Source: Pratylenchus scribneri (lineage: Eukaryota > Nematoda > Chromadorea > Rhabditida > Pratylenchidae). Taken from it: a DNA stretch of 64,000 nucleotides. Positions within the stretch are counted from its first letter, which is position 1, and every line of letters begins with the position of its first letter. This document shows positions 8,088 to 64,000 of this stretch, in pieces. Location: positions 1,302,001 to 1,366,000 of the forward strand of contig JAQSEB010000001.1 of the NCBI GenBank assembly GCA_030063045.1, written 5' to 3'. The notes beneath the pieces are model-generated. The model did not search any database, had not been told where the DNA came from, and saw only the letters and a program-made list of their open reading frames with translations. Position numbers and translations under genes: made by a program.

Positions 8088-11000
8088 ATGTCCTCGCCAA
8101 TCTCCACCAAATTTGCAAAATTTTTATTGGCAATTTTGTTGTCATTTTTCCTCCAAATTCCTTCCTCCCTCCATTCACCGCAATCACAATCAATCGCCGA
8201 TTCAATTTATGGCTATTCAATTGAGGAGGATGTACCAATGCCAACATTGAGTAGCAGGGAGGAAAGGCCAATTTCCCCAGCACCATCTATGCCAAAACAA
8301 TTGAGGAAAAGTCATCCAATTGAATTGTTTGTGTTCCTTTCATTTTCTTTTGTTGAATCCTTTTTAGGAGCATTGATTCCGGTTCGATCCGTGGCGAATA
8401 TTTGGTATTCCTCCTTTAATAATTCTTCTCCTAATTTATTAATTTAACCGTAGACCATCGATGCCAACGAATTTGCCGTCTTCAAGGGAATCCCCTATGC
8501 CGCCCCTCCCGTCGGCTCACTTCGTTTCCAGATGCCGGAGCCGCCGGCAAAATGGCGAGGCGTAATGAATGTTCGTTCAATTTAATTTGTTAATTTTAAT
8601 GTTGTTTTCCCTACCGTAGGCTTCCCAGTATCCTCCAGTGGGTTTTTTTGTGCCCATCATTAATATACCTAAATGCATAGATGTGCGCCCAACGGCAAAG
8701 GGACCGGCCAATTGATCCAATCAATTTGTACAAAATTCACGTTTCCGAGGATTGCCTCTATTTGAATGTTTTTGCACCTCCTCAAGTCCGTATTCTCATT
8801 TGTAATTGGCCAATTTTCCGAATCAATTCAATCCATTCAGTTCACAAATGACACATATCCTCTCATTGTTTGGATCCATGGAGGGCGTTTCCAATTTGGC
8901 TCCAGTGCCGATTGTAAATTACCCCCAAACTTCTTCCAATTATTCACCCCTGTATCCATCTTAGATCCCCAGCAAGCCATCCTCAACAATTTTGTGTCCC
9001 GAAAGGTCATCTTCATTTCCCTGAATTTTCGTCTTGGCCCTATTGGTTTTTTCTTCCCTTCCTCTTCACCACTTATTCCCATTTTAGGTTTTCTTTCCAC
9101 CGGTGATTCAGTTTTGCCTGGCAATTTGGGTCTTTGGGACATTCTTTTGGCCCTAAAATGGGTCCAAATCAATGTTGGTCATGTCCCCAATATCTTTCCA
9201 AAAATATTTGTTCCCCACAAAGGCACATGTTTTTGGTGGTGACCCAAACAATGTGATGTTAATGGGACAAGGCTCAGGCGCATCTGCCGCCTCCCTACTT
9301 GCACTTTCACCAAAGGCAAATGGTTGTTTTATTGGGGCTAAATTGATAGATTAATAATTTATTTTAGGCCTTTTCCACAAAGTAATGCTGTTGAGTGGGA
9401 CGGCAATTACGCCGGGCTCTGTTCGGGACACGTCCATAAATGGCACCTGGGCATTGGATGCCCAATTGCATTGTCGTTCATTCAATTCCAGCGAATTGTT
9501 GGAATGCTTCAAAAAACAATTACGCGATGAAATTTTGGCATTTGAAGTTTTTTGAATTAGATTCATTGAATTCATTCCCTCGGATTTAGCCAAATCCTGA
9601 CCCTGATTATGATGTTTTTGTGCCAATTGTGGACGGCGAGGATGGACTGATCCCGGAGGACCCAGAAACGATGGCCATTTCAAGGAGGAAGATTCCAATA
9701 ATGTTGGGTACCACACGGGACGAAAGTGCCCTTCAATTATGTAAATATAATAAATTAATTGGGAGGGGAAAATTTTTAATTACAATTAGATTCTTTTTGT
9801 GAAACCTCAATACCTTATGGAAAATTTAATATTAAAATTGTCCCCAATATTTTGAGTACTTTTGAACGAAAAAGAGACGAATATGAGCAGCGAATTAGAA
9901 GTGGTAATTGCGGAAAAATTGGTCTCCAATTTGGTGCATTCCTTTTCCGGCTTCACCAACCATCAATTAATTCGTGAGGGCGCAAAACATGAATACATTT
10001 GGACCAGGGTGGATCCATCGATGCCGCCCACCCTCAATGAATCCATTCTCAAAGTGGGAATTTGGGGAATAAATATTTTAATTGAATTGTCCAATTTGTT
10101 TGAAGATGTTCTCACATTTTTGGTTCGACTCGCCCACAGCAAGGCTGGCAACATATTATGCCCGTCAGGAAATGCCTGTTTTCCTCTATTCTTTCGATCA
10201 TGTCAGCGAAAACTTTGAAACCGACAGTAAACAAGGGAATTCATTTTGGCCAAATATTCGCTAATTTTAGGAGTTTTTCACGGTTGCGATGAAATTTTCC
10301 TATTCGAATTGGAACGTCGTTTTTTGAGTAAAAGGAAGGATCGAAATTGGCAATTGGATCGAAGGGTGACGGAATTGTTCGCCACAATGATTGTGAATTT
10401 CCTCAAATATGGGTATTTTACCATTACTCAAAAAATGCCTAATTTTACTACCAAAAAAGTGAACCAACACCGGAATCAGCCCGCCTCTCCTTCAATTGGA
10501 CTTCAACCACAACCGCCCAACTTGACTATTTATCCATTACGGATTCGCCGAAAATGGAAGTTGGATTCCGATGGCAGGCTCATGTTTTTTGGAATAAATA
10601 TGGTCAGTTTAGCTAATAAGAGAATTAATTCCATATAAGAATAATTTCGTACGTTTTAATTCCGCCTGGTTAGAATAATTCGCCTGGTTGACTAAGTTTT
10701 AATAATTCCGCCTGGTTGACTAAGTTTTAATAATTCCGCCTAGTTAGAATAATTCCGCCTGGTTGACTAAGTTTTAATAATTCCGCCTGGTTGACTAAGT
10801 TTTAATAATTCCGCCTAGTTAGAATAATTCCGCCTGGTTGACTAAGTTTTAATAATTCCGCCTGGTTGACTAAGTTTTAATAACGCCTGTTTTAAGAATA
10901 ATTCCGCCTGGTTGACTAAGTTTTAATAATTCCGCCTGGTTGACTAAGTTTTAATAATTCCGCCTGGTTGACTAAGTTTTAATAATTCCGCCTGGTTGAC

Positions 11001-62146: not shown

Positions 62147-64000
62147 AGGCGGAATTAAAACTTAGTCAAACAGGCGGAATTATTAAAACTTAGTTAGTCA
62201 AACAGGCGGAATTATTAAAACTAGTCAACCAGGCGGAATTATTAAAACTTAGTCAAACAGGCGGAATTATTAAAACTTAGTCAAACAGGCGGAATTATTA
62301 AAACTAGTCAACCAGGCGGAATTATCAAAACTTAGTCAAACAGGCGGAATTATTTAAAACTTAGTCAACCAGGCGGAATTATTAAAACTTAGTCAAACAG
62401 GCGGAATTATTTAAAACTTAGTCAACCAGGCGGAATTATTAAAACTTAGTCAAACAGGCGGAATTATTAAAACTTAGTTAGTCAACCAGGCGGAATTATT
62501 AAAACTTAGTCAACCAGGCGGAATTATTAAAACTTAGTCAAACAGGCGGAATTATTAAAACTTAGTCAAACAGGCGGAATTATTAAAACTTAGTCAAACA
62601 GGCGGAATTATTAAAACTTAGTCAAACAGGCGGAATTATTAAAACTAGTCAACCAGGCGGAATTATTAAAACTTAGTCAAACAGGCGGAATTATTAAAAC
62701 TTAGTCAAACAGGCGGAATTATCAAAACTTAGTCAAACAGGCGGAATTATTAAAACTTAGTCAAACAGGCGGAATTATTAAAACTTAGTCAAACAGGCGG
62801 AATTATTAAAACTTAGTCAAACAGGCGGAATTATTAAAACTTAGTCAAACAGGCGGAATTATTAAAACTAGTCAACCAGGCGGAATTATTAAAACTTAGT
62901 CAAACAGGCGGAATTATTAAAACTTAGTCAAACAGGCGGAATTATTAAAACTAGTCAACCAGGCGGAATTATTAAAACTTAGTCAAACAGGCGGAATTAT
63001 TAAAACTTAGTCAAACAGGCGGAATTATCAAAACTTAGTCAAACAGGCGGAATTATTAAAACTTAGTCAAACAGGCGGAATTATTAAAACTTAGTCAACC
63101 AGGCGGAATTATTAAAACTTAGTCAACCAGGCGGAATTATTAAAACTTACTCAAACAGGCGGAATTATTAAAACTTAGTTAGTCAACCAGGCGGAATTAT
63201 TAAAACTTAGTCAAACAGGCGGAATTATTAAAACTTAGTTAGTCAACCAGGCGGAATTATTAAAACTTAGTCAAACAGGCGGAATTATTAAAACTTAGTC
63301 AAACAGGCGGAATTATTAAAACTTAGTCAAACAGGCGGAATTATTAAAACTAGTCAACCAGGCGGAATTATTAAAACTTAGTCAACCAGGCGGAATTATT
63401 AAAACTTAGTCAAACAGGCGGAATTATTAAAACTTAGTCAAACAGGCGGAATTATTAAAACTTAGTCAAACAGGCGGAATTATTAAAACTTAGTCAAACA
63501 GGCGGAATTATTAAAACTTAGTCAAACAGGCGGAATTATCAAAACTTAGTCAAACAGGCGGAATTATTAAAACTTAGTCAAACAGGCGGAATTATTAAAA
63601 CTAGTCAACCAGGCGGAATTATTAAAACTTAGTCAAACAGGCGGAATTATTAAAACTTAGTCAAACAGGCGGAATTATCAAAACTTAGTCAAACAGGCGG
63701 AATTATTAAAACTTAGTCAAACAGGCGGAATTATTAAAACTTAGTCAACCAGGCGGAATTATTAAAACTTAGTCAACCAGGCGGAATTATTAAAACTTAG
63801 TCAAACAGGCGGAATTATTAAAACTTAGTCAAACAGGCGGAATTATTAAAACTTAGTCAAACAGGCGGAATTATTAAAACTTAGTCAAACAGGCGGAATT
63901 ATTAAAACTAGTCAACCAGGCGGAATTATTAAAACTTAGTCAAACAGGCGGAATTATTAAAACTTAGTCAAACAGGCGGAATTATCAAAACTTAGTCAAA
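62147..64000 (+). repeat. Minisatellite array, shared-core family, spacer type I (inverted), runs off the window
   Basis: At least 66 units of CAGGCGGAATTAT plus TAAAACTTAGTCAAA (28 bp). Variants (AACTAGTCAACC, ATTATCAAAAC, TTAGTTAGTC) recur in the same order, for example near 62950 and 63600, so longer blocks have been copied. It lies in an intron of the EF-hand gene. Confidence 0.97.

What the first reader, a model, noticed from the sequence alone, without database searches (positions are those of the whole stretch)
10660..64000. Seven dispersed minisatellites share one 11-13 bp core but have three different spacers
Arrays at 10660-11830, 15597-15945, 18840-19330, 36170-37822, 44080-44835, 57350-57995 and 62147-64000 all repeat CAGGCGGAATTAT or its complement. 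The rest of the unit differs: TAAAACTTAGTCAAA, TTTGGGGCAAATTGAA or TCTAAGTTCGC. A core kept while spacers drift suggests the core is what is recognised, by a protein or by an amplification mechanism, rather than random satellite spread. Five of seven lie in introns, in both orientations relative to the host gene. From memory, holocentric Meloidogyne centromeric satellites were described as diverse repeats sharing a conserved box; this may be a similar logic with a different box, but that link is inference.
Basis: partly seen in the sequence, partly recalled or inferred. Interest (0 to 1): 0.82.

Follow-up and report, generated by a model that had tools for sequence, protein, structure and literature searches.

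The report
Minisatellites swap spacers, keep core
In a root-lesion nematode genome, short repeat arrays stay at the same places in related chromosome copies and keep a 12-letter core, while at some places the rest of the repeat unit has been replaced by an unrelated sequence, which suggests copying between arrays that uses the core as a common handle.

Summary
The seven arrays are real: 254 core matches (<=1 mismatch) against 0.10 expected. The genome fits the Pratylenchus scribneri assembly, not Meloidogyne; the M. incognita 19-bp centromere box is absent at <=1 mismatch. The core is genome-wide, with at least nine spacer classes.

Homeologous copies are decisive. For 11 of 13 array loci queried, one or two sister loci were found by flanks; all 21 sister arrays sit at the same site with the core in the same orientation. 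Window flanks differ by about 4-6%, yet at 3 of 11 loci (W3, W6, W7) the spacer class differs wholesale, with edge relics of another class at all three. e-class arrays share variants within a homeolog (p=0.0068); a-class arrays do not (p=0.55).

Best explanation: ectopic conversion between core-sharing arrays. Recognition of the core by a protein is not excluded. Whether the core is under constraint depends on counting: counting all differences it is (p=0.0019), counting only minority variants inside arrays it is not clear (p=0.12). An unrelated minisatellite is also kept in place.

The parts
10656..11957 (-). Array W1: a-class units mixed with short classes b, c and g; degenerate edge units
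   Evidence: sister arrays on C32 (1,676 bp) and C4 (1,682 bp), also a-class
15600..15944 (-). Array W2: e-class units (TGTTTGGGGCAAATAAAA type)
   Evidence: sister arrays on C32 (798 bp) and C4 (960 bp), also e-class
18821..18844 (+). e-class spacer relic at the 5' edge of W3, outside its a-class interior
   Evidence: ATTAAATGTTTGGTGCAAATAAAA; a similar stretch (21 of 24 bases, by eye) at the same edge on C4
18845..19337 (+). Array W3: a-class interior; first spacer (18857-18871) is a hybrid, e-like head and a-like tail; both sister arrays are e-class
36166..37830 (+). Array W4: d-class units (TCTAAGTTCGC types); sisters are d-class with h, g, b or c units mixed in
44066..44833 (+). Array W5: e-class units, variant ending in AAATTGAA; sisters e-class
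57348..57997 (-). Array W6: a and b units; C4 sister a-class, C32 sister e-class (3,032 bp)
62146..64000 (+). Array W7: a-class, continues beyond the window; C4 sister a-class, C32 sister e-class with a/g-like relics at both edges
49307..51876 (.). Control: unrelated minisatellite W8, also present at both sister loci, shorter there, with the same unit
18527..18799 (-). Kazal-type exon downstream of W3 on the host strand
   Evidence: Kazal_2 E=8e-10
19388..19963 (-). Exon upstream of W3 on the host strand, weak Kazal match
   Evidence: Kazal_2 E=0.0044, below curated cut-off
8766..9239 (+). Carboxylesterase-family exon(s) upstream of W1
   Evidence: COesterase E=1.6e-20
35043..35378 (+). Nuclear-receptor zinc-finger exon upstream of W4
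   Evidence: zf-C4 E=3.8e-18; two downstream ORFs gave no Pfam family
61322..61588 (+). EF-hand exon upstream of W7
   Evidence: EF-hand_7 E=8.4e-12

Best explanation
The arrays are a dispersed, long-lived minisatellite superfamily. Each array stays at its site in a fixed orientation, but its contents turn over. Tracts of units are copied ectopically from other arrays into it, by non-allelic gene conversion or template switching during repair or replication of the array, and are then amplified locally. The 12-bp core CAGGCGGAATTA is the sequence shared by all classes, so it is the annealing handle that keeps orientation and register, while the spacer joined to it can be swapped. Shown: site, orientation and core are kept across homeologs; the spacer class differs wholesale at 3 of 11 loci, with edge relics; few units are hybrids; e-class variants are shared along one homeolog. 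Inferred: that the process is conversion or template switching, that it runs between loci in general, and that the core is needed for it.
For: Sister loci on C32 and C4 were found by flanks for all 7 window arrays (blastn identity 89-95% for 11 of 14 flanks, 74, 77 and 82% for the rest). Every sister locus obtained carries an array with the core in the same orientation: 21 of 21 sister arrays, found by flank and not by core, making 32 arrays at 11 loci. Class differs at W3 (C1 a; C32 and C4 e), W6 (C1 and C4 a; C32 e) and W7 (C1 and C4 a; C32 e), although window flanks are 93.7-95.6% identical by substitution. Edges: an e spacer plus an e/a hybrid at W3-C1, a hybrid of the same build at W6-C1 and C4, and a/g-like units on both sides of the e block at W7-C32. 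1,119 of 1,142 units lie within 4 edits of one of ten class units; of 294 class changes between neighbouring units only one, the first unit of W3-C1, joins e and a directly. e-class arrays share variants within a homeolog (mean similarity 0.508, 10 pairs) more than pairs that share neither homeolog nor locus (0.208, 21 pairs), permutation p=0.0068 with extended arrays (0.0026 with two truncated ones); same-locus pairs average 0.221 (5 pairs, not tested separately). Flanks of 15 arrays share nothing longer than 74 bp except one segmental duplication, so no carrier element is seen.
Against: The a-class shows no within-homeolog sharing (0.407 against 0.439, p=0.55). Only 3 of 11 loci changed class, always between a and e, and all three lie in this window. 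No donor array was identified. The control minisatellite W8 is also kept at both sister sites without this core, so site retention needs no special mechanism. The unit decomposition places unit borders at the core by construction, and short spacers fit within 4 edits easily, so 'changes fall at the core' is weaker than the counts suggest. The 13 loci themselves were chosen by their core, and some arrays with a related spacer lack it. The core is depleted of changes when differences fixed within an array are counted (p=0.0019), which selection on the core would also give. Mis-assembly was not checked with reads.
Confidence: 0.55

Rival explanations
1. The core is a protein-binding site under selection (holocentromere, meiotic pairing or another chromosome function, as proposed for the CenH3-associated 19-bp box of Meloidogyne), and spacers are free to change.
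For: Core constant across unrelated spacers and in 21 of 21 sister arrays found by flank; genome-wide in both orientations. Counting all differences from the class units, the core is depleted of changes (53 core, 106 spacer, expected core share 0.456, p=0.0019; in the 21 sister arrays alone 29 and 67, p=0.0028). In Meloidogyne, divergent repeats sharing one box are reported to be CenH3-associated (PMC9673304 passages).
Against: Counting only variants carried by at most half of the copies in an array, core depletion is not significant (52 and 82, p=0.12; sister arrays 28 and 49, p=0.14). Units with a changed core are amplified: CAGGTGG at locus 190 on C7, a mix of changed cores on C32, CAGGCTG in the higher-order repeat of W4; CAGGTGGAATTAT has 918 copies genome-wide. 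The M. incognita box is absent at <=1 mismatch. Exact cores per array vary from 2 (C221) to 101 (W6-C32). No binding data exist here.
Confidence: 0.25
2. Ancestral arrays already mixed several classes, and each homeolog fixed a different one by unequal exchange within the array; no copying between loci is needed.
For: Mixed arrays exist for a/b/c/g and d/h/g/b/c classes. Edge relics are also expected under this model. The a-class shows no sharing between loci.
Against: a and e are not interleaved in any of the 32 arrays; they meet once, at the edge of W3-C1. The e-class sharing by homeolog needs exchange between loci. d and a patterns adjoin as separate blocks near 1.049 and 1.108 Mb of C1 in the listed coordinates.
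Confidence: 0.14
3. A transposable element carries the repeats and inserted them repeatedly.
For: Dispersed genome-wide in both orientations.
Against: No shared flanks among 15 arrays apart from a segmental duplication and short matches. The same sites in all sister copies despite different classes. Array edges decay into unit-like relics.
Confidence: 0.03

Closest known systems
CenH3-associated tandem repeats of Meloidogyne sharing a 19-bp box (Despot-Slade et al. 2021; original not held, seen only as cited in PMC9673304 and PMC10630426 passages)
   Same: Several divergent tandem-repeat families in a plant-parasitic nematode share one short conserved box; short arrays
   Different: Box sequence differs and is absent here at <=1 mismatch; no CenH3 data for P. 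scribneri; here spacer replacement in place is seen between homeologs
Dispersed minisatellites sharing a core (Jeffreys 1985; legend passage in PMC3909909; rest recalled)
   Same: Short core common to many loci; length varies strongly between copies
   Different: Core sequence is not the G-rich human core (recalled); here whole-array spacer change with fixed site and orientation is documented between homeologous chromosomes
C. elegans pairing-centre motifs bound by HIM-8 and ZIM proteins (PMC9071541 passages)
   Same: A 12-base motif present many times along chromosomes
   Different: Pairing-centre motifs are enriched at one end of each chromosome; these arrays occur inside contigs, and no such protein or binding was tested
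C. elegans minisatellite CeRep25B near alternative splicing regions (PMC4039745 abstract)
   Same: Minisatellite near or in introns of a nematode
   Different: Abstract describes no multi-class family with a shared core and no exchange of array content

Membership tests
Meloidogyne CenH3-associated repeats with 19-bp box | The 19-bp box sequence | tested here: not met
   0 matches at <=1 mismatch in 227 Mb, box taken from PMC10630426 methods
Meloidogyne CenH3-associated repeats with 19-bp box | Divergent tandem-repeat families sharing one conserved box | tested here: met
   At least nine spacer classes share CAGGCGGAATTA; the box is a different one
Meloidogyne CenH3-associated repeats with 19-bp box | Association with CenH3 | not testable with these tools
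   needs ChIP or CUT&Tag
Core-sharing dispersed minisatellites (Jeffreys type) | Tandem arrays at separate loci with different flanks sharing a short core | tested here: met
Core-sharing dispersed minisatellites (Jeffreys type) | Allelic length hypervariability in a population | not testable with these tools
   Homeologous arrays differ in length (W6: 614, 733 and 3,032 bp), but there are no population data
Core-sharing dispersed minisatellites (Jeffreys type) | The human G-rich core sequence | tested here: not met
   By inspection only; the human core is recalled, not from a call
Telomeric repeat | Concentration at chromosome ends | tested here: inconclusive
   2 of 10 contig starts (C1, C3) carry the family within 10 kb; contig ends are mostly not chromosome ends
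Transposable element-borne repeat | Common flanking element sequence or ends | tested here: not met
   15 arrays, up to 500 bp on each side
Pairing-centre motif arrays | Binding by a HIM-8/ZIM zinc-finger protein and enrichment at one chromosome end | not tested
   No search was made for the proteins or the known motifs

The most novel reading that the evidence does not exclude
The nematode carries a genome-wide set of fixed cassette sites, some of them inside genes. Each has a constant orientation and core, and its spacer content is rewritten from a shared pool along each chromosome copy. The sites act as anchoring elements of a holocentric chromosome, with the core as the recognised element and spacers as interchangeable fill, so centromere-like repeats are replaced in place by conversion rather than moved.
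Probability: 0.17. Interest if true: 0.85.

Novelty: new variant of a known kind. Interest (0 to 1): 0.6.

Why it matters
How a short core persists in satellites while everything around it changes is an old question, from human minisatellites to CENP-B-like and Meloidogyne boxes. Here homeologous copies show the outcome of single steps: same site, same orientation, same core, different spacer, with relics of another class at the edges. That makes a mechanistic test possible (is the core a recombination handle or a binding site?) in an organism with tens of thousands of core copies, and it warns that core conservation between loci alone need not mean selection on the core.

Tried and rejected
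Meloidogyne as source: rejected. Telomeric repeat: not supported. Carrier element: rejected for the 15 arrays compared. Core published before: searches for an 11-base stretch of the core on each strand found one paper each, both unrelated by title; 'Pratylenchus' with 'satellite DNA' showed 10 of 18 papers, none about such arrays by title. This library only.

A first genome search with window 1-10000 listed only short interspersed repeats and missed the sister loci (37 of 1,065 candidates were scored); the flank query found them (40 of 2,939 scored). Constraint on the core: one search gave 30 against 52 variant types, p=0.035, but found units by their core. (26 arrays, 37 against 62, p=0.16) dropped variants fixed in an array for spacers only, which favoured 'no depletion'. 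One search repeated it on 34 arrays without that filter (p=0.0019) and with the same filter on both sides (p=0.12). Because of this I moved odds from the conversion model (0.60 to 0.55) to the binding rival (0.20 to 0.25), and the novel case from 0.15 to 0.17. The earlier p=0.0026 for e-class sharing used two truncated arrays; with the extended ones it is 0.0068. Positional retention as evidence of function: dropped after the W8 control.

Rows dropped: of 13 loci queried, two were left out of the homeolog counts (C1 112 kb, no sister among the candidates scored; C1 886 kb, flank repetitive). C1 594 kb has one sister. Searches used arrays with at least 8 units of the class (9 e-class, 8 a-class; W5-C32 fell out).
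Full report
What it is in. The window is contig C1:1302001-1366000 of a genome of 227,248,964 bases in 276 contigs. The published Pratylenchus scribneri assembly has 276 contigs and 227.24 Mb (PMC10138993, passages), so I take the species as P. scribneri. This rests on assembly size and contig number; an rRNA check did not complete. A chromosome catalogue lists the species with 12 chromosomes and ploidy 2 (PMC11555361, table passage).

The observation. All seven arrays are present. 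The core has 254 matches at <=1 mismatch in the window against 0.10 expected. The exact 13-mer is counted 23,215 times forward and 23,215 times reverse, with 0 for the reversed control; the equality is unexplained. Class patterns gave: a 2,616 + 2,076, e 2,209 + 1,916, d 1,624 + 1,546, and the changed core CAGGTGGAATTAT 408 + 510, reversed control 2 + 1. In the first 100 places listed for each class, all on the plus strand of C1, d runs from 757 kb to 1.11 Mb and again at W4, a starts at 1.03 Mb and e at 1.10 Mb, so classes look regional there; the rest of the genome was not listed.

Anatomy. The part common to all classes seen is CAGGCGGAATTA. Spacer classes: a TTAAAACTTAGTCAA(A/C), b TTCTTAAAA, c TTCTAAC, d TTCTAAGTTCGC and variants, e TTTTGGGGCAAATAAAA and TGTTTGGGGCAAATAAAA types, g AAACTTAGTCAAC, h AAA, j TTCTAAGCGAAAACACAAAA, k TTAAAATCAGAA. 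By alignment against shuffles they fall into three loose groups. Many arrays mix classes. Arrays with a k-like spacer but without the core exist at contig starts (L012, L016). Other minisatellite families with a fixed piece and variable linkers also occur (L011, L014, L020).

Homeologs. A query of 250-base left flanks of 13 arrays (7 window, 6 elsewhere on C1) found colinear sister loci for all 7 window arrays on C32 (2.849-2.902 Mb, same direction) and C4 (815-763 kb, opposite direction), and for 4 of the 6 others on C7, C32, C226 or C221. Identity is 89-95% for 11 of the 14 window flanks, and 77% and 74% for W2 and 82% for W7 on C4. Substitution identity over the flanks read at window loci (best local match on each side, gaps left out) is C1-C32 94.7%, C1-C4 93.7%, C32-C4 95.6%. 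Every sister locus carries an array: 21 sister arrays, found by flank and not by core, all with the core in the orientation of C1; with the C1 copies 32 arrays at 11 loci. Two are short or decayed (190 on C32, 594 on C221).

Spacer replacement. W1 is a-class, W2 and W5 e-class and W4 d-class in all three copies. W3 is a-class on C1 but e-class on C32 and C4. W6 and W7 are a-class on C1 and C4 but e-class on C32. Edges tell the direction in part. On C1, W3 is preceded by an e spacer and its first spacer is an e-head/a-tail hybrid (TGTTGGGACGTCAAC), while its interior is a-class. The first spacer of W6 on C1 and C4 is a hybrid of the same build. On C32 the W7 e block is flanked on both sides by decayed a/g-like units. 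So at W3 e was probably replaced by a, and at W7 a by e. At the other four loci with sisters (757, 852, 190, 594) the class mix is similar in all copies, with changed proportions. Thus 3 of 11 loci changed class.

Where changes happen. Decomposing the 32 arrays into ten class units gave 1,142 units, of which 1,119 lie within 4 edits of a class unit, and 294 changes of class between neighbours; a and e meet once, at the first unit of W3-C1. The method sets unit borders at the core and short spacers fit easily, so this shows that hybrids are few rather than proving that switches occur in the core. One array, W4 on C32, contains a second copy of its own 5' flank between cores, which shows how host sequence can become a new spacer.

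Exchange between loci. Among nine e-class arrays, similarity of spacer variants is 0.508 for the same homeolog and different loci (10 pairs), 0.221 for the same locus and different homeologs (5 pairs) and 0.208 for neither (21 pairs). The permutation test compares the first with the last: p=0.0068 (with two truncated arrays 0.0026). Among eight a-class arrays the values are 0.407, 0.422 and 0.439, p=0.55. The first speaks for copying between loci along one homeolog; the second does not.

Is the core under constraint? The answer depends on what is counted. In 34 arrays decomposed into class units, distinct substitutions are 53 in the core and 106 in spacers where 45.6% would be expected in the core (p=0.0019). 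Leaving out, on both sides, variants carried by more than half of the copies gives 52 and 82 (p=0.12). In the 21 sister arrays alone the values are 29 and 67 (p=0.0028) and 28 and 49 (p=0.14). So minority variants arise in the core about as often as in spacers, but few reach majority in an array. Selection on the core would do this; so would conversion with other classes, which all carry the same core. The spacer references are arbitrary and the same fixed difference can count in several arrays. An earlier version (p=0.16) filtered spacers only. Changed cores can still be amplified.

Control. The unrelated minisatellite at 49307-51876 is also found at both sister sites, about 0.8 kb on C32 and 0.4 kb on C4 against 2.6 kb here, with the same unit. 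So one unrelated minisatellite is kept in place over this divergence too; what sets the core family apart is replacement of content.

Mechanism. I favour ectopic conversion or template switching between arrays, with the core as shared homology (0.55). It explains fixed site, orientation and core, block-wise class changes, edge relics and sharing along a homeolog. That the core is required is inferred. Protein binding (0.25) and sorting of mixed ancestral arrays (0.14) remain.

Compared with what is known. The design resembles the Meloidogyne repeats with a 19-bp CenH3-associated box (cited in PMC9673304 and PMC10630426, passages; the original paper was not held), but that box is absent here at <=1 mismatch. 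It also resembles core-sharing human minisatellites. I came across no report of in-place spacer replacement between homeologs, but my literature searches were few, showed capped lists and did not target that question.

Noticed in passing
C1:1302001-1366000, C32:2.849-2.902 Mb, C4:763-815 kb: Three colinear homeologous copies about 4-6% apart in substitutions, although the genome paper reports a diploid fit; this may point to a hybrid or polyploid history.
   Followed up: partly
whole genome: (TTAGGC)4 has no exact match in the assembly, although P. penetrans is reported to have the repeat (PMC10844300 passage). Loss, other repeats or missing ends are all possible.
   Followed up: no
window 302-556 and 938-1096: Short interspersed repeat with about 50 diverged matches listed in the genome; by eye it holds a tRNA-like B box, so perhaps a tRNA-derived SINE.
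   Followed up: no
L013 (C3:1-10000), 6.2-8.1 kb and from 9.2 kb: Two g-class arrays with identical left flanks over 499 bases: a recent segmental duplication carrying the array.
   Followed up: partly
L031 (C32:2876450-2879450), 5' edge of the W4 sister array: A second copy of the host flank lies between cores inside the array, an example of new spacer capture.
   Followed up: partly
L048, L049 (C7 1.061 Mb, C32 1.816 Mb): Blocks of units with changed cores (CAGGTGG on C7; CAGGTGG and AAGGTGG on C32) inside j-class arrays.
   Followed up: partly
L012, L016, L019 contig starts: AAATCAGAA-type minisatellites, two of them like the k spacer, without the core.
   Followed up: no
L014 2698-3599, L020 3276-6551, L011 201-2104: Further unrelated minisatellite families with a fixed piece and variable linkers.
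   Followed up: no
Forward and reverse counts of the core are exactly equal (23,215), unlike the class patterns; cause unknown.
   Followed up: no
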